From the IMG/VR virus record IMGVR_UViG_3300003203_000001, positions 1 to 53,571 of that record: 53,571 nt of DNA; one strand, 5' to 3'. Every line of letters starts with the position of its first letter. Position 1 is the stretch's first letter. This document shows positions 44,458 to 51,735 of the stretch, piece by piece. Source of the stretch: a virus. The notes beneath the pieces are model-generated. The model had not been told where the DNA came from and did no database searches. It saw only the letters and a list, made by a program, of their open reading frames with translations. A program made the translations under genes and the position numbers.

Positions 44458-45666
44458 TTAGTGGCGGTCCTTGCTGGTGGCGAGCGGTTGCTGCCATTCC
44501 GGCTTGTACGGCGGCGGCGAGTCCTGGCGTGATTCCGGCTTGCGGCCGGATTCACTGGTGAAGCGGCGCGCGTGATCGAGCGCGTCGTTGCGGTCGTTGT
44601 TTCCACCGCGCGTCTTGTTGTCGAATCGTTCGAGGATGGCGTCGAAGCGCGCGGCCACGTACTCGTCGCTCTTGCCCTTGAGCTCGAGCTTGCTGTCGTA
44701 CTTGAGCAACGCCGCTTCGTGCACCTGCCGCGGCGTCAGTCCGTCGAACTTGAACTCGTCGCCCAGGAACTTGCGCGCCGATTCCAGGAGCGCTGCGCGC
44801 TCGTTCACCGCGGAGTCGAGGCGCTTCGGATCGCTCGCCTCGGCGAGCTTCTTCTTGGTGTCCTCGAGCTCGGCGGCGGTCGTGTCGAACTTTGCCTGCA
44901 GCGTGTCACGCGCCGCCGTGAGCTGTTTGATCGAGTCGTCGCGCTGCGAGAGCGCCTTCTCGATCACCTGTCCCCACTGCTTGGGAACCTGGACGTCCAG
45001 ACCGTCCACGCGAACGTTCGTTAGATCCATGATGTCGTCTCCTCCTCGCCGCTCGGGCGCGTCGCAGATCACTCCCGCGCTCGCGTCGAGACGGTACGCT
45101 TGGCCGAGGCTCTCGGCGTCGTCGTCTTGGTCGAGGCGCAGCGCGACCTCTCGGCCGGCGCGTCCCCAGTTGCGCGGCCCAAGCGCTGCGTGGTTGTACA
45201 CGATGTCGCGCTGCACCACGTCGTACGGCTCGCCCTCGAACGTGCCTGGCGTCGCGTCGATCCGGCAGCGGTAGCCCATCGATACTTCGCGCCGCTTTCC
45301 GGCTTCGACAGCCTCGATCACCGCCTGGTCCTGGACGGTTACGCTGGTCACGACCAAGTTGCCGTCGCGCCGCGCCTGCTCGCCGAGGTGGCCGATGGCA
45401 TGCCTGCGCACGTTCGCCGGCGTCACCATCTCGCTCGGGTGCAGGTCGGTGACCGGTGCAGCCGCCAGCGTCGCGAGCGACGCCGGCGCGAAGACTTCTT
45501 CCGCCGGGCGGAACTCGCGAATGGTCGTGCCGTCGGCGCGGCGGTAGGCGAAGACGCCGACCCTCGTGACGTTTGCGGGCGCGCGGAGAAACCCCTGCGG
45601 CGTTCGCTCGGTCGCGCCGAGCGAGGCAACGTCGAAGCGCAGGACGCGCTCAGCGGGCGGGTTCAC
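44458..45666 (-). CDS. Prohead protease/scaffold (DUF2213-like)
   Basis: This is a 402-aa protein from GTG 45666. LRFDVASLGATERTPQGFLR, VTDLHPSEMVTPANVRRHAI and KRREVSMGYRCRIDATPGTF are DUF2213 protease hallmarks. The C-terminal half is a long coiled-coil scaffold (VIEKALSQRDDSIKQLTAAR). Protease and scaffold are thus fused. The 16-bp repeat lies 5 bases before the start. Confidence 0.87.
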   Translation of the reverse strand: MNPPAERVLRFDVASLGATERTPQGFLRAPANVTRVGVFAYRRADGTTIREFRPAEEVFAPASLATLAAAPVTDLHPSEMVTPANVRRHAIGHLGEQARRDGNLVVTSVTVQDQAVIEAVEAGKRREVSMGYRCRIDATPGTFEGEPYDVVQRDIVYNHAALGPRNWGRAGREVALRLDQDDDAESLGQAYRLDASAGVICDAPERRGGDDIMDLTNVRVDGLDVQVPKQWGQVIEKALSQRDDSIKQLTAARDTLQAKFDTTAAELEDTKKKLAEASDPKRLDSAVNERAALLESARKFLGDEFKFDGLTPRQVHEAALLKYDSKLELKGKSDEYVAARFDAILERFDNKTRGGNNDRNDALDHARRFTSESGRKPESRQDSPPPYKPEWQQPLATSKDRH

Positions 45667-45716: not shown

Positions 45717-46703
45717 TTAGCGGCGTCGGGCGCTGGGCACGTTGGCCGGCGGTGGCTGCGGGAACCCCGGCGGAACCGCCGGGAGGGTTGGCTCGGGGTA
45801 GTCGAGCTCAACGTCCTCCGGAGCCATCAGGCCAGCTGCGACCAGCACATCGTCGACGATCGGGATCGCGGAGCACCGGCAGCGGATCGGCTGTCCAGGA
45901 TGTCCTCGCTCGCCTGTGCGCTGGTTCACGACGGGCGGCTTCGCCCACTCCTGGATCGTGCCCTCGAGCACGCGGTGGTCGTGTCGCACCTTCTCGTCTC
46001 TCGAGGTCGACCACCGGTAGCGGCGAATGCCGAGATTCTGCTGGCGAAGCTGGTTCAGCTCGCCGTTGAGCTTGCCGATCTGGTCGCTCGCGATCAATGC
46101 GGCCCGCTTCTTGGGCATCTCGAATCGCGTCTGGATCTGCTCCGCGACGACGGTGTGGTGCAGTCCCTGGCGAGCAGCGCGAATCAGAATGCCCTTCAGA
46201 TCGGCAAGGTGCTCCTCGACCATCCCAGTCACGAGCTCGACGTTCTCCGACACAAACAGGTCGAGGTGATCAGCAATCCCCGTGACGTCATCGTACAGGT
46301 TGATCTTCGCGACCTGCTGGATCTGCCGCGCGAGGTCGCTCGCCTGCCAGCGCGATGTGCGCAGCGCGGCCTGCTGCGAGAGCATGAAAATCGCGCGCTC
46401 AGGGATTGCGGTTGCGACGCTGGCTTCGAGCTGAGCGAAAGCCTTCTCGATGTCGTCCTCGGCGGCGTCTGCGCGCGCGGTTGCTTCCGGACGCATCGCG
46501 TTGTGTGGATCGAGGATCGTGGGCAGCGCCGGGAGCAGGTCGCCCCGCACGATGGCGTGCTCGACGTCGACGATGTGTGCGAGCTGCCTGTAGTACAAGA
46601 GGCGCTCGTTCGACGGAAAGCGCGGCCTCGGCCACTTGCGCAGCTTCCTTCGCCGCACACCCATTGCGGCCTGCATGCGCAGCGCGTATTCGAGCGCTCT
46701 CAC
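45717..46703 (-). CDS. MuF-like minor head protein
   Basis: This is a 328-aa protein. ASDLARQIQQVAKINLYDDV, LIRAARQGLHHTVVAEQIQT, RAALIASDQIGKLNGELNQL, YRWSTSRDEKVRHDHRVLEG and HPGQPIRCRCSAIPI give the full Phage Mu gpF/SPP1 gp7 pattern with its closing Cys-Arg-Cys. It sits next to the portal and is usually ejected or head-internal. A Pro-rich tail ends it. Confidence 0.9.
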   Translation of the reverse strand: MRALEYALRMQAAMGVRRRKLRKWPRPRFPSNERLLYYRQLAHIVDVEHAIVRGDLLPALPTILDPHNAMRPEATARADAAEDDIEKAFAQLEASVATAIPERAIFMLSQQAALRTSRWQASDLARQIQQVAKINLYDDVTGIADHLDLFVSENVELVTGMVEEHLADLKGILIRAARQGLHHTVVAEQIQTRFEMPKKRAALIASDQIGKLNGELNQLRQQNLGIRRYRWSTSRDEKVRHDHRVLEGTIQEWAKPPVVNQRTGERGHPGQPIRCRCSAIPIVDDVLVAAGLMAPEDVELDYPEPTLPAVPPGFPQPPPANVPSARRR

Positions 46704-47095
46704 GGGGACTCCGGGTCGCGCTGAATGACCACTCCACGCCGCACGAGCTCAGGCTCGATCGTCGCCAAGATGCTCGCGCACGCCTTGCGCATGGAGTCCT
46801 GACGCTCACTGAGGCGGGGAATGCGGGGCTTCGTGAGAACGATGCAGCGTTCGACCGGCGCGAGGTCGGGCTCCTGGATCAGCACCTTGCGCATCGCACG
46901 AACGACCGCGACCCCTTCGTAAATGCACTGCGCACCGGTCCGCATGCGCGTCGCGATTGCGTCGCTGCACTCGCTCCAGCCGAGGAACATGAGGTCGTCG
47001 GCATGCAGAACCGGCAAGCTCAGCTTGCCGCCGAGCTCAAGCGCGAGCGAGGTCTTGCCGGCGCGCGGCGAGCCGATGACGGCGATGCGTGTCAT
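46700..47095 (-). CDS. P-loop nucleotide-binding protein, kinase-like
   Basis: This is a 131-aa protein. The P-loop is IAVIGSPRAGKTSLALELGG (residues 4-23) and the next part ADDLMFLGWSECSDAIATRM resembles small nucleotide kinases. A possible lid region is IVLTKPRIPRLSERQDSMRK. It overlaps the MuF-like gene by four bases. A kinase inside the head module is uncommon. It might phosphorylate a nucleotide or be an adenylate-kinase-like topology enzyme. Confidence 0.75.
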   Translation of the reverse strand: MTRIAVIGSPRAGKTSLALELGGKLSLPVLHADDLMFLGWSECSDAIATRMRTGAQCIYEGVAVVRAMRKVLIQEPDLAPVERCIVLTKPRIPRLSERQDSMRKACASILATIEPELVRRGVVIQRDPESP

Positions 47096-47107: not shown

Positions 47108-47332
47108 TCAGCCCAGCCCGGCCTTCTTATCGAGGTGGCGGATGTACTCGCTGAGCGTACCGGTCCAGCCCTCAGCGTCGGCCTGCTTCTGGAGACGCCT
47201 GTGTTTTGCCGAGACCATCCACCGCTCGCCCTCGTCGGAGAGTGGGATCGTGCCTGCCGGTTCGTCCGGCGTGTCGCGATCGGAGAGCGGTAGCGCTTCC
47301 GTGGCGTCCTTAGGCGCGTTGTCGTCGGTCAT
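47108..47332 (-). CDS. Small acidic protein after the portal
   Basis: This is a 74-aa protein: acidic N-terminus (KDATEALPLSDRDTPDEPAG) then a basic helix (WMVSAKHRRLQKQADAEGWT, LSEYIRHLDKKAGLG). It lies six bases beyond the portal fusion. It could be an immunity-type or head-assembly partner of the toxin-like domain, but nothing in its sequence proves that. Confidence 0.6.
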   Translation of the reverse strand: MTDDNAPKDATEALPLSDRDTPDEPAGTIPLSDEGERWMVSAKHRRLQKQADAEGWTGTLSEYIRHLDKKAGLG

Positions 47333-47338
47333 AGCGAA

Positions 47339-50254
47339 TCAGAAACCTTTGTCAGAAACCTGCTGCTCCGCCAACAGCGAGTCGTTGAGAGTCGGATGGC
47401 TGTGTACCCGCGCGGAAATCCGGCCCTCTGGGACCACGATAGCATATTCGTCCTCAACTCCCCACAGTGCGCCTTTCTGCGAGGAATGCTCGGCAACAAC
47501 CCTGGAATAATGGACTTTCGAGGCCATGACGACCCCCGTGCTGCCGGCGAACGAGGTCGCCACGTTCGGGTCCGACGTCCAGCTCGACACCCCCCGCGTC
47601 TCGACCAACTGCGTCGAACCAACGCCACCGATCTCCTTTGACGCCTTCGCTTGGCCTGCGCTGATGCCGCGATAGAGCGTCAGGTTGCCATCGGCGTCGA
47701 CGATTCCCTGTGCGCGCAACTCGGGCAGCTTCGCTGCGATGTTCACTTGCGTGGCGTGGTAGAGCGCTTGCTCCGGCGATCCCTTCTTGCTGAGGCCTTC
47801 CACCATTTGAGTCGCGTTGGCGTCCGAGCTGGTGTCGACCCAGCGCTGCGACCACTTCATCGCGCCGTCTGCCTTCTCCGGACCAGCCGCTTTCGCGATG
47901 TTCGCCTGCGCCGAGCCGTACCACTTCAACGCCTCGGCATCCGAATGCGTTCCGTGTGCCGCTTTGATTGCGCTCGCCATGGCTGCGTCGTTCTTAGCGC
48001 CGATCAGCGAGAGTCGGCCAGTGCCGATCGCCGCGTCAGCGTCCACGTGAACGCCGAGCACCTCATGTGTTCCGCCTTCGCCATACGCCTTCGCGACTTG
48101 GTTTTCGCGCGCTCTGGCGGCTTCGAGCTTCGTCTTGGCAGTCGCCAGCCCCTGCGAGTACGTATGCTTGAGGTACGCCCCGTGCGCGGTGGCTGCGAGA
48201 CCCTCGAGCTCCTTGACGTCCGACTCGAGCTTCGTAAGCCCGTGCGGTTTCGGAAGCGGCACCGGGACCTTGGGCGCCTTGACGTTCTTGTCCTCGGCCG
48301 ACTCCTTCTTCGCGGCTTGCTTCTTCTTCTTCTGCTGCGCCGCTACCTTCGCCTGCTGCTGCTTCGTGGGCTTCTTTTTCGGCTCGCTCGCCGCAGGCTG
48401 TTTCGCAGCCGCAAGCTTCTTACCCTTCGGGCCGCTCGGCACGCCCGGCGCAGCTGAGCTAGTGGTCTTCTTCGGTGCTTTTTTGCCCTTCGCGCCGGCG
48501 CTTGTCTTCGCTGCCTTCGTCGTGCCAGCAGACTTCGCGGCCTTGGCGCCCGCCGGCTTTTTCTTCTTGGCCTTCGCCCCCGCGCCGCCTCCACTGGTCC
48601 ACCGACCATTGGCGTCGCGCGGTTGGTTTGGATTGTAGTCCTCGCGCTCGGCGTCGCTTCGACCCTCGTCGAGGTCGTCCGGCTCGTCATCGGCCTCTTC
48701 GTTTTCGTCCGGCTCGCCGTCGTCGGACTCGTCTTCCTCGTCGTCGGCGACCTCTTCGTCGTCGTCGATCTCGTCCTCTTCCGCGGGATCTGCGTCTTCC
48801 TCGTCGGCGTCGCTACGCGGTTCCTCCTCGTCCTCCTCCTCGTCTTCCGCGCCTGGAACTGGCGGTTGGGTGGTCGCCTCACCCGGGCGAAGTCCCTCGG
48901 CGAGATCAGCCTGCAGCAGCTTGCGGCGGTGCTCGGCGTCGATCTCCGGGATCACCTTCGCGAGCGCGATGCCAGCTTCGGCTTCCATCTCGATCTGCGC
49001 AGTGACCAGGGCGACGTGCATGTCCGCCTTGGTTTTCAGCATCGTCGCGTGCTCAAGCTCGGTTGGCTGCCAGAGCGGGCGGAACTTGATTGCCCAGCGC
49101 TCCGGCAACTTCCCGCGCATCGGCGAGTCCTTCGAGGACATGATCAGGCGCAGCATTCGCTCCAGTCGCGGCTTCAGCTTGTCGGTCTGCTCGTCCTCGA
49201 CCGTGTCGTACCAGCCTCGAATATCGCTCTCGCCGGTCGCGTTGAGCCCTGCCGGCGAGCGCCCATACAGCAGCGTGACCGGCATCTCTGCCGCGCTCGC
49301 CGCGCGCTGCATCATGCGGTCCATCATCTCGGGCAGGCCGGCGAAGCTCGTCGCGACGCGCTCGAAGCTCTCTCGATCAGCGTCGACGAGCAGCGCGCGG
49401 CAGACCGAGCGCGCCATGTCCATCATCTGGATCCGAGTGCGGAGCTCCTCCTGCGAGCCGGTGGCGATCAGGTCGACCAGGTTCGCGATCTTCAATACGC
49501 CCTGGCTCGCATCGCTGATCAGGTGCGCCGCCGACTGCCAGCTCATCGCAGTCTCGCGCAGCGCGTTGTGCACGACCTGCAGCACCGAGTCCTGCCATCC
49601 ATCGTTGCGTTGCCCGATCGTCGCAGCGGTGAGCGCTCCCTCAAACACGATCAGGCGCGAGGCATGGATCAAGACGCCGGTGCCAGTCGGTGCTGCGCCG
49701 TTGGTACTGGTGCGGTTCACCTCGTAGAGCAGCGGCTTGTCGAAGTCCGCCGCCGTCACGTCCTCGTTGCGCGTCTTGATCGCGAGCTGCGGGCGCTTCA
49801 TCACGTTCAGGAACTGGATCGAGCGGATCGCCTGCTCGTTCAGCGGCTGGTTCGGTTCCTGCCCGTCGTCGGCGCCGATGAACACCGCTCCGCCGCCGTA
49901 GAGACGCGCCCAGGTCCATGCCTCGCGCAGTGATGGCACCACGCCGAGCTGGCCGAGATGGTCCATCAACTCGCGGTTACGCTCGGCGCTCTCCTCGAAG
50001 GTCGCCCCCTCGAGCTCGAGCTCGAAGCCGCGCCGAGTCGCATCACGCGGCAGCTTGGTAACGATCTTCTTCGCGAGGTCGTCGTCGTTGAACAGCGACT
50101 CGAGCGTGATGTCGCTCAACCGCACGCCGGGCACGACCTGCGTGTGGATCACCTTGTCGCGCACAGTGCCGAGGCCGGTCAGCGCGTTGATCCAGCTGTC
50201 GGTGCGAACGACGGCGCTAGCGACCGCGTCCGCTACAGCGCGCGCGACGCTCAC
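47339..50254 (-). CDS. Portal protein fused to an ADP-ribosyltransferase-like domain
   Basis: This is a 971-aa protein from GTG 50254. Residues 1-455 are a DUF1073 portal (LKIANLVDLIATGSQEELRT, LLYGRSPAGLNATGESDIRG). Residues 460-535 are very acidic (EDEEEDEEEP and more). NPNQPRDANGRWTSGGG marks about 545. Residues 555-650 are Lys/Ala-rich. The C-terminus (about 800-950) shows R-S-E motifs of arginine ADP-ribosyltransferases: LTLYRGISAG (860), VSSWTSDPNVATSFAG (894) and VEDEYAIVVPEG (931, ExE). Portals are usually 450-550 aa, so half the protein is an addition. Confidence 0.87.
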   Translation of the reverse strand: MSVARAVADAVASAVVRTDSWINALTGLGTVRDKVIHTQVVPGVRLSDITLESLFNDDDLAKKIVTKLPRDATRRGFELELEGATFEESAERNRELMDHLGQLGVVPSLREAWTWARLYGGGAVFIGADDGQEPNQPLNEQAIRSIQFLNVMKRPQLAIKTRNEDVTAADFDKPLLYEVNRTSTNGAAPTGTGVLIHASRLIVFEGALTAATIGQRNDGWQDSVLQVVHNALRETAMSWQSAAHLISDASQGVLKIANLVDLIATGSQEELRTRIQMMDMARSVCRALLVDADRESFERVATSFAGLPEMMDRMMQRAASAAEMPVTLLYGRSPAGLNATGESDIRGWYDTVEDEQTDKLKPRLERMLRLIMSSKDSPMRGKLPERWAIKFRPLWQPTELEHATMLKTKADMHVALVTAQIEMEAEAGIALAKVIPEIDAEHRRKLLQADLAEGLRPGEATTQPPVPGAEDEEEDEEEPRSDADEEDADPAEEDEIDDDEEVADDEEDESDDGEPDENEEADDEPDDLDEGRSDAEREDYNPNQPRDANGRWTSGGGAGAKAKKKKPAGAKAAKSAGTTKAAKTSAGAKGKKAPKKTTSSAAPGVPSGPKGKKLAAAKQPAASEPKKKPTKQQQAKVAAQQKKKKQAAKKESAEDKNVKAPKVPVPLPKPHGLTKLESDVKELEGLAATAHGAYLKHTYSQGLATAKTKLEAARARENQVAKAYGEGGTHEVLGVHVDADAAIGTGRLSLIGAKNDAAMASAIKAAHGTHSDAEALKWYGSAQANIAKAAGPEKADGAMKWSQRWVDTSSDANATQMVEGLSKKGSPEQALYHATQVNIAAKLPELRAQGIVDADGNLTLYRGISAGQAKASKEIGGVGSTQLVETRGVSSWTSDPNVATSFAGSTGVVMASKVHYSRVVAEHSSQKGALWGVEDEYAIVVPEGRISARVHSHPTLNDSLLAEQQVSDKGF

Positions 50255-51735
50255 GCGACGCCCAGCTCCTGTGCGACATTGTGCATGGCGGTCTGGTATG
50301 CGACGACCGCCGCCTTGTGAAGCCCCATGAACGCGCGGCTACACGCGTCGACGATGTCCTTGTGCTTGCCGTCGGGAAAGGCCTCGAGTTCGGCGAAGAA
50401 CTCGTCATTCCACGGCCCCTCGACGATGTCGACGTTTCCGGCCTCAACCTGCGTGCTGAATGGCCCTGCGTAAACGAGCTTGTCTTCGCGCGCGACCTCG
50501 GACTCGACGCGGTAGCCGGCGAGCAGACTCTTGGTGAGTGTTACGTCCACCTTGCCCGCTTGCGCCGGGTCTTGCCACACCAGGATCTTCACTCGCTTGC
50601 CGTCCTGGCTCGCGGTGTTCGCCATCACCTTCAGGACCTGGCCCGGGCTGCCGCGCAGCGACTCGATGTGCAGCACGACGAATCGTCCCTCGCGCGTGAC
50701 TCCCATCTTCACGCCGCGCGTCCATGCAGGATCTGGGCTCTCGTTGGTGACCTGGGTCGCGGCTTTGTCCCAACCGCGCACGACGACGATCAGGTCCGAC
50801 GGCGCTCGCTCGATCACGCGAAACCATCCGCGCCGGAAGTACAGCCCGGCGGCGGGCTTGATCCGCCAGTTGCCGCCGGCGCCCTTGCCCAACAAGCGCT
50901 CGCGCTCAACCAGCGGCAAGCTCATCAGGCGCGCGCGATAGCCCGGGTCCTGCTTGAGCAAGATTTTGTTGTCTGCGAGGCGCCCCAAGATGAACGTGAA
51001 GCTCGTCGGAGGGATCGTCTTACCTTCATCGTCGACCATTTCGGGGAAGCGCGCGGTCAGCTCCTCCGGCGTGTCGGCCCATTCCAGCACGTCGCCGATC
51101 CGGTAGAAGTAGCGGATCACGCCGCTGCGCTCCGGGCGCGCGTACTCGCCGCGCTCGTCGAGCCACCAGAGGATCATCTTCTTGACCCAGGACTCCGGGT
51201 CCGGGTTCATCGTCGCGCGGATGTACGACTTGACGCCGCTTGTGCTGCGGCAGCGCGAGTACAGGTACCAGAACTGCGTCTCGGTAAAGTGCGGCAGCTC
51301 GTCGAAACCGATCAGCGAGTAGCCCTTGCCCTGGTGCGACTCTTTGTCGGCTTCGTGCTGCAGGTGCCCGAGCTGCAGCGACGCGCCGCTCGGGAACACC
51401 GCGCGGAACGGGTTCTGCGTGAGGCGCGCGCCGAGCGGCGGATACCACTCGCGCATCAGCTCCCAGAGCGAGCCCGGCCCCTCGAGCTGCGGTGACGTGC
51501 GCCGGAAGATGATCCCGCCGGCGCCCTTCACGTCGTAGCAGCGCATACCCTCGAGCACGAGCCCGGAGGTTTTCGAGCTGCCGGCCTCGCCGCCGTAGAA
51601 GACGATGTCGGCGGTCGAGCTGAGGAACTTCTCCTGCGAGCCCGGCTGCGCGCCGATGCGCACGACGCGGATGCGCCGCTTACGCTTCTTCGTCTTCGAC
51701 GGTTTCGTCGCCGATATCGTGCGGGCGGCGTCCAT
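50251..51735 (-). CDS. terL: Terminase large subunit
   Basis: This is a 494-aa packaging ATPase-nuclease. The Walker A-like loop is DIVFYGGEAGSSKTSGLVLE (near residue 48), Walker B is YSLIGFDELPHFTETQFWYL, and motif III follows (SYIRATMNPDPESWVKKMIL). The nuclease half has VVVRGWDKAATQ and later KILVWQDPAQAG and DIVDACSRAFMGLHKA, with acidic metal ligands. It overlaps the small subunit by 56 bases in another frame. Confidence 0.92.
   Translation of the reverse strand: MDAARTISATKPSKTKKRKRRIRVVRIGAQPGSQEKFLSSTADIVFYGGEAGSSKTSGLVLEGMRCYDVKGAGGIIFRRTSPQLEGPGSLWELMREWYPPLGARLTQNPFRAVFPSGASLQLGHLQHEADKESHQGKGYSLIGFDELPHFTETQFWYLYSRCRSTSGVKSYIRATMNPDPESWVKKMILWWLDERGEYARPERSGVIRYFYRIGDVLEWADTPEELTARFPEMVDDEGKTIPPTSFTFILGRLADNKILLKQDPGYRARLMSLPLVERERLLGKGAGGNWRIKPAAGLYFRRGWFRVIERAPSDLIVVVRGWDKAATQVTNESPDPAWTRGVKMGVTREGRFVVLHIESLRGSPGQVLKVMANTASQDGKRVKILVWQDPAQAGKVDVTLTKSLLAGYRVESEVAREDKLVYAGPFSTQVEAGNVDIVEGPWNDEFFAELEAFPDGKHKDIVDACSRAFMGLHKAAVVAYQTAMHNVAQELGVA
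50293..50308 (-). repeat. 16-bp repeat, copy 3
   Basis: This is identical to the copies at 32935-32950 and 45672-45687. Here it is coding: it gives VVAYQ in the terminase C-terminus (AAVVAYQTAMHN), 6 bases before an in-frame ATG (50286). The portal start lies 38 bases further on. Confidence 0.8.

What the first reader, a model, noticed from the sequence alone, without database searches (positions are those of the whole stretch)
47339..50254. Portal protein carrying a C-terminal ADP-ribosyltransferase-like domain
The sequence shows a full-length portal followed by acidic and Lys/Ala-rich linkers and a domain with R-S-E motifs (LYRGI, SSWTSDPNVATSFA, EDEYA). Known MuF proteins and toxin-bearing phages carry ADP-ribosyltransferases on head proteins, but the usual carrier is MuF, not the portal. 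Twelve copies per head would place the enzyme at the vertex. It may be injected with DNA or modify host protein at assembly.
Basis: partly seen in the sequence, partly recalled or inferred. Interest (0 to 1): 0.85.

Follow-up and report, generated by a model that had tools for sequence, protein, structure and literature searches.

The report
Phage portal protein carrying ADP-ribosyltransferase domain
In this uncultured temperate tailed phage, the ring protein through which DNA leaves the head carries at its end what is very probably an enzyme that attaches ADP-ribose to other molecules, and close relatives carry different enzymes or none at the same place, so the ring seems to be a carrier for exchangeable cargo; such fusions are already known in outline.

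Summary
The 971-residue ORF at 47339-50254 (-) is a genuine Phage_portal_3 portal (residues 50-411, E 2e-83), then an acidic linker, a junction motif, a Lys/Ala-rich stretch and a C-terminal domain. The ART reading is well supported although no family library calls it significantly. Portals of two other viral contigs carry a homologue (34-36% identical). R862, S890/S891 and E934-x-E936 are conserved. An alignment-based AlphaFold2 model puts them on strands in ART order, and its ten best PDB matches are all ARTs, but weakly (best E 0.02, TM 0.30). The portal's C-terminus should point into the head, as in the distant relative E217.

Portal-fused ARTs are already described (PMC9503650, PMC5512222), so the kind is known. 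Less expected is the context. Among portals mostly 55-71% identical in the core, the tail is ART, zincin-like, helical or absent. All 12 long tails begin with one motif; 12 short ones lack it. One zincin-like module is fused to the portal in one phage and is a separate gene in another.

Most likely this is a head-packaged effector that acts on host molecules early in infection. Release from the ring, ejection, activity and target are inferred, not shown.

The parts
47339..50254 (-). Portal-ART fusion gene, 971 aa, GTG start overlapping the terminase stop codon
49022..50107 (-). Portal domain (Phage_portal_3/DUF1073), residues 50-411
   Evidence: Pfam PF06381 E 2e-83; profile of this clade's portals matches the solved Pam3 portal E 3e-36 and E217 gp19 E 2e-9
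48635..48859 (-). Acidic linker, residues 466-540 (48 of 75 residues D/E)
   Evidence: low-complexity DNA repeats there
48590..48634 (-). Junction motif NPNQPRDANGRWTSG, residues 541-555; its counterpart starts every extended portal tail of the clade
48245..48589 (-). Lys/Ala-rich basic stretch, about residues 556-670
47342..48019 (-). C-terminal ART-like module, residues 746-971 (N-terminal helices, then the alpha/beta core)
   Evidence: homologues L023, L027; AlphaFold2 with 10-row alignment, core blocks pLDDT mostly about 75-92; Foldseek
47666..47677 (-). LYRG, residues 860-863: catalytic-type Arg862 on the first core strand
47576..47587 (-). SSWT, residues 890-893: the S-T-S-type motif on a core strand
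47447..47455 (-). E934-D-E936: the ExE motif at the start of a late core strand
50251..51735 (-). Terminase large subunit, context
   Evidence: PF03237/PF17289
45717..46703 (-). MuF protein, 328 aa, without a C-terminal cargo domain
   Evidence: PF04233; compared with relatives' longer MuFs
44458..45666 (-). DUF2213 protein in the scaffold/protease position, a candidate for any head-maturation cleavage (inference)
   Evidence: PF09979 E 2e-42

Best explanation
The gene encodes a working portal subunit whose C-terminus carries an R-S-E-type mono-ADP-ribosyltransferase as head cargo. The portal domain builds the ring at the DNA vertex. Its C-terminus points into the head, so the ART is enclosed with the packaged DNA, on a long acidic-then-basic tether. 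After adsorption the ART acts on host protein, nucleic acid or a defence component early in infection, in the manner of T4 Alt, most simply after cleavage in the linker frees it to leave with the DNA. Supported here by sequence, homology and model: portal, linkers, ART-like domain with its catalytic-type residues, temperate contractile-tailed context, exchange of this tail among relatives. Inferred from solved relatives: location inside the head. Inferred only: cleavage, ejection, enzymatic activity, target.
For: Portal. ART homologues on other portals, 34-36% identical over 160-183 residues, pairwise E about 1e-26; window-free profile E 2e-26 against a decoy best of 0.19. Across six diverse sequences the only invariant columns are G, G, R862, G, S891, F, E934 and E936. 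L037, a protein of another viral contig that matches this profile (E 3e-6; fetched by its DADG..LYRG pattern), matches Pfam DRAT, dinitrogenase reductase ADP-ribosyltransferase, E 7e-5. The L027 homologue matches Pfam ART (NAD:arginine ADP-ribosyltransferase), E 0.09. AlphaFold2: R on strand 112-119, SSW on strand 144-148, then helix 151-158, ExE on strand 188-195 of the 226-residue fragment. Foldseek against PDB: the top ten are ExoS, VahC, C3 and PARPs, ART families throughout; BFVD matches down to E 4e-5 include a phage head-morphogenesis-domain protein. Location: the E217 portal barrel projects into the head, and its model ends at residue 528 of 765 (PMC10329688; PMC11042391 for Pa193). 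Published precedent: phage ARTs fused to head or portal proteins, enriched in myoviruses (PMC9503650). The window encodes a tail sheath, baseplate proteins and a serine-recombinase-type integrase.
Against: No curated family recognises the window's own domain, and no PDB sequence match is relevant. The PDB fold matches have E no better than 0.02 and TM about 0.2-0.3, so the fold is indicated, not proven. The model was helped by remote sequences chosen partly for the LYRG pattern. A ring-bound domain cannot leave the head unless released, and no cleavage site or canonical prohead protease was identified. Catalytic activity may be lost; no experiment bears on it.
Confidence: 0.65

Rival explanations
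1. The ART stays on the ring and is not injected: it acts in the producing cell before or during assembly, modifying host proteins, or modifies capsid or packaging components.
For: The fusion is one unbroken ORF, so every subunit should carry the domain; no cleavage site is known. PMC9503650 itself offers countering of immune processes that target the packaging apparatus as an alternative.
Against: Relatives hold quite different cargo (zincin-like, helical) at the same place and other cargo types on MuF, which fits delivery of effectors better than a shared assembly step; late host modification would not need a portal.
Confidence: 0.2
2. A structural or degenerate ART-like domain: the fold survives and helps pack or bind DNA, without catalysis.
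For: The domain is very divergent, lies outside every curated family, and sits behind a basic, possibly DNA-binding stretch; some relatives' tails are purely helical (L007, L020, L021).
Against: At about 34% identity the R, SSW and ExE positions are kept in all three homologues, and in six diverse sequences they make up half of the invariant columns.
Confidence: 0.12
3. A toxin for competition between bacteria, MuF-polymorphic-toxin style, with an immunity gene next door (for example the 74-aa ORF at 47108-47332).
For: Temperate phage (integrase); exchangeable C-termini; ORF74 follows directly and occurs in no other fetched locus.
Against: ORF74 has no family match and no counterpart beside the ART portals L023 and L027, where a separate motif-bearing cargo-like gene follows instead.
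Confidence: 0.12
4. Not an ART: some other alpha/beta domain with R, S and E by coincidence.
For: No significant direct match to any ART family; low TM-scores.
Against: Conservation pattern, strand order and ART-only top matches together; chain to DRAT through L037.
Confidence: 0.07

Closest known systems
Portal- and MuF-fused effectors of phages (polyvalent or head-packaged effectors; PMC5512222 and PMC9503650)
   Same: A packaging-module structural protein (portal) carries a C-terminal enzymatic domain predicted to be packaged and injected; ARTs on portal or head proteins are stated explicitly, and portals fused to PBECR, 2H, InPase, Nudix and lysozyme domains are named.
   Different: This ART subfamily is not recognised by Pfam, NCBIfam or PDB sequences. 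I did not find in the papers read the common junction motif or the exchange of cargo within one portal clade, but the literature search was limited to open papers.
T4 Alt / R-S-E clade ARTs
   Same: R, S and ExE active-site pattern; expected to be enclosed in the head and used early.
   Different: Alt is a separate internal protein; here the enzyme is fused to the portal. No sequence-level relation to Alt was shown. Target unknown.
MuF polymorphic toxins of temperate phages (PMC5576092)
   Same: Temperate phage, head-vertex protein, variable C-terminal enzyme; ARTs are among MuF cargo.
   Different: The carrier is the portal; this phage's own MuF is short and bare. No immunity gene established.
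E217 / Pa193 / Pam3 portals
   Same: Homologous portal domain (Pam3 and E217); E217 and Pa193 portals have about 237 C-terminal residues that are not modelled, beyond a barrel that projects into the head.
   Different: The passages read report no ART there; whether their unmodelled tails are cargo was not tested here.

Membership tests
R-S-E clade ADP-ribosyltransferase | Arg on first core strand, S-[TSW]-[TS] on a later strand, ExE glutamates on a late strand | tested here: met
   Sequence and conservation; strand positions in the model
R-S-E clade ADP-ribosyltransferase | ART fold | tested here: inconclusive
   Top ten PDB matches are ARTs, but E 0.02 at best and TM about 0.3; BFVD E 4e-5
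R-S-E clade ADP-ribosyltransferase | Significant match to a curated ART family | tested here: not met
   None for the window's domain in Pfam or NCBIfam; only through homologues (L027 Pfam ART E 0.09; L037 DRAT E 7e-5). A limit of sensitivity and not a defining biochemical feature
R-S-E clade ADP-ribosyltransferase | NAD+-dependent transfer | not testable with these tools
   needs an enzyme assay
Portal protein (Phage_portal_3) | Full-length portal domain in a terminase-portal-MuF-capsid gene order | tested here: met
Portal-fused head effector | Enzymatic domain in the same ORF behind a complete portal domain | tested here: met
   same architecture in L023 and L027
Portal-fused head effector | Present in virions and delivered into the cell | not testable with these tools
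   needs virion proteomics and an ejection assay
MuF polymorphic toxin | MuF domain as carrier | tested here: not met
   Carrier is the portal; MuF (45717-46703) is separate and 328 aa
MuF polymorphic toxin | Adjacent immunity gene | tested here: inconclusive
   ORF74 unique to the window, no family

The most novel reading that the evidence does not exclude
In this phage clade the portal C-terminus is an exchangeable cargo slot: a conserved junction motif (R-x-P-x-G-x4-GG-[QR]-[WF] or RDxxGRWTSGG) starts every extended tail, and the same motif near the N-terminus of separate neighbouring proteins marks them as head cargo. The motif would be a packaging or processing signal at which cargo is released inside the head, and whole cargo modules would move between portal-fused and free forms, with MuF as a second carrier.
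Probability: 0.35. Interest if true: 0.75.

Novelty: new member of a known kind. Interest (0 to 1): 0.5.

Why it matters
It adds a divergent ART subfamily, missed by family libraries, to the list of head-borne phage effectors, on the less usual carrier. The comparison among relatives makes an open question testable: how does an enzyme fused to a ring that stays in the virion get into the cell? The shared junction motif and the zincin-like module that is fused in L024 but free in L027 give a definite place to look for processing. It also suggests that the unmodelled C-terminal residues of solved portals such as E217 gp19 deserve a search for cargo.

Tried and rejected
Single-sequence AlphaFold2 was useless (pLDDT 38). 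Sequence searches with the C-terminal domain alone found nothing in phages, viral contigs, genome contigs or the PDB; the one PHROG match, phrog_16619 minor head protein, is weak (E 8e-4). Profile search of the PDB gave only weak, unrelated matches, venom proteins from the helical part among them. A portal-profile scan of bacterial genomes found no prophage, so the host is unknown. The two repeats in L003 look like ARTs (R, SWT/SWS, EAE), but a profile of them does not find the window's domain; its best window match, a baseplate hub protein at E 0.004, is chance. hhalign between the two sets gives only 69% probability, though E 5e-5, so I call L003 a probable, separate ART type. Broader LYRG DNA patterns brought mostly unrelated proteins plus a few ART-like ones. 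The junction motif in isolation is too short for a database search.

Full report
What is there. The window is a 53,571-base IMG/VR virus record. On the minus strand lie a ParB/methyltransferase gene, a small terminase (PHROG E 4e-19), the large terminase, the gene in question, two small genes, MuF, a DUF2213 protein, a structural cement protein and the major capsid protein. Elsewhere in the window are tail sheath, tape measure, baseplate hub, baseplate wedge and a serine-recombinase-type integrase, so this is probably a temperate phage with a contractile tail. The portal gene starts at GTG 50254, overlapping the terminase stop as GTGA, and runs unbroken to 47339: 971 residues.

Anatomy. Residues 50-411 are Phage_portal_3 (E 2e-83). 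Residues 466-540 are 64% Asp/Glu. At 541 comes NPNQPRDANGRWTSGGG, then a Lys/Ala-rich stretch to about 670, then the C-terminal part. LYRG is at 860-863, SSWT at 890-893, EDE at 934-936.

Is it an ART? The window's own domain matches no Pfam or NCBIfam family and no PDB sequence, and the phage collection has no tblastn match. The evidence came through relatives. Portal searches in viral contigs brought L023 and L027, whose portal tails end in homologues (34-36% identity). A profile of those two alone finds the window with E 2e-26; reversed decoys reach 0.19. R862, S890-S891-W892 and E934/E936 are among the conserved positions, and with the more distant L003 repeats and L037 added, eight columns remain invariant, four of them R, S, E, E. 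L037 was fetched with a DADG..LYRG pattern, so only its S and ExE count as independent; it matches DRAT, a known ART family, at E 7e-5. AlphaFold2 with ten sequences reached mean pLDDT 71, mostly 74-92 in the core, with R, SSW and ExE on strands in ART order. Foldseek's ten best PDB matches are all ARTs of several families, but with E 0.02 or worse and TM about 0.2-0.3, so this is consistent support and not proof. I put the ART assignment at about 0.9.

Relatives show an exchangeable tail. Among the fetched portals (most 55-71% identical to the window in the core, a few 32-34%), tails differ: window-type ART (window, L023, L027); two ART-like repeats plus a zincin-like HExxH domain (L003); zincin-like domains (L002, L014, L016, L024, L028); helical only (L007, L020, L021); short or none (L015, L017-L019, L022, L025, L029-L034). 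The zincin, helical and ParB labels rest on reading motifs by eye, not on family matches. The same region's MuF proteins also vary: kinase-like (L022 by eye; L015 with a weak PI3/PI4-kinase match), ParB-like (L017, L025, L034), zincin-like (L029, L030). PHROG family 19443, 'minor head protein', matches the L002 portal's zincin-like end (E 7e-7) and, in another part, a MuF (E 0.003), which suggests that portals and MuF share cargo.

The junction. All 12 extended tails begin with a motif of the form R-x-P-x-G-x4-GG-[QR]-[WF] or RDxxGRWTSGG; none of 12 short-tailed portals has it (L023 read by eye). Some of these contigs are close relatives, so the counts are not independent. In L027 the gene after the portal-ART encodes a free 541-residue protein whose residues 51-540, from the motif on, are 49% identical to residues 480-935 of the L024 portal. 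The same module is thus fused in one phage and free in another, joined at the motif. Free proteins with the motif near their N-terminus also follow the portals of L017, L020, L021 and L023.

How it most likely works. In E217, whose portal is a distant homologue, the C-terminal barrel projects into the head and the model ends at residue 528 of 765 (PMC10329688); in Pa193 residues 529-765 had no density (PMC11042391). By inference the ART sits inside the head on a flexible tether, its basic part perhaps touching DNA. For delivery it must be freed from the ring; the junction or linker is the obvious place, and the DUF2213 protein or a host protease are candidates, untested. The target cannot be told from sequence; ExE is often seen in arginine-specific enzymes (general knowledge), no more.

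What is known. [quoted passage not shown] PMC5512222 names portals fused to PBECR, 2H and InPase domains; PMC5576092 describes MuF toxins including ARTs. The finding is therefore a new member of a known kind. The in-clade exchange at a common motif I did not see described in the papers read, but eight searches of a library of open papers cannot establish priority.

Limits. Host unknown. The relatives used for the tail comparison are uncultured viral contigs, many partial. Activity, virion content, cleavage and ejection are untested.

Noticed in passing
window 46700-47095 (-): A small P-loop kinase-like gene (weak AAA_18 and PHROG 'kinase' matches) lies between portal and MuF and has homologues in most fetched clade loci, whatever the portal tail. 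Role unknown.
   Followed up: partly
window 47108-47332 (-): 74-aa ORF directly behind the portal-ART gene; no family and no counterpart in any fetched locus. Possible immunity or regulatory gene, or nothing.
   Followed up: partly
L027:1836-3461: Separate zincin-like protein, 49% identical from residue 51 on to the tail of the L024 portal, with the junction motif at its start.
   Followed up: partly
L022:9836-12061 and L015:9449-11329: MuF proteins with a C-terminal kinase-like domain (DRHxxN; PI3_PI4_kinase E 0.014 for L015) in phages with bare portals.
   Followed up: no
L003:5681-6829: Two tandem ART-like repeats (R, SWT/SWS, EAE), 38% identical to each other, inside one 1482-aa portal that also has a zincin-like end.
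   Followed up: partly
L037:4154-5458: Viral-contig protein with a C-terminal domain matching DRAT, E 7e-5.
   Followed up: partly
L038:360-5708, L039:2-5161, L046:248-5434: Very large (1720-1783 aa) proteins of viral contigs with an ART-like LADADGxxxLYRG segment.
   Followed up: no
L047:6536-6964 and L049: Stand-alone ART-like ORF (LYRG, SWT, EAEF) in two viral contigs; its last 85 residues match unnamed Mycobacterium phage genes at 32% identity.
   Followed up: no
L056:4995-5546: Methylobacterium bullatum replicon ORF (about 184 residues, unannotated) that begins with the same junction motif, ADQPRVPAGHPDGGQWTDGG; the motif may be wider than this phage clade.
   Followed up: no
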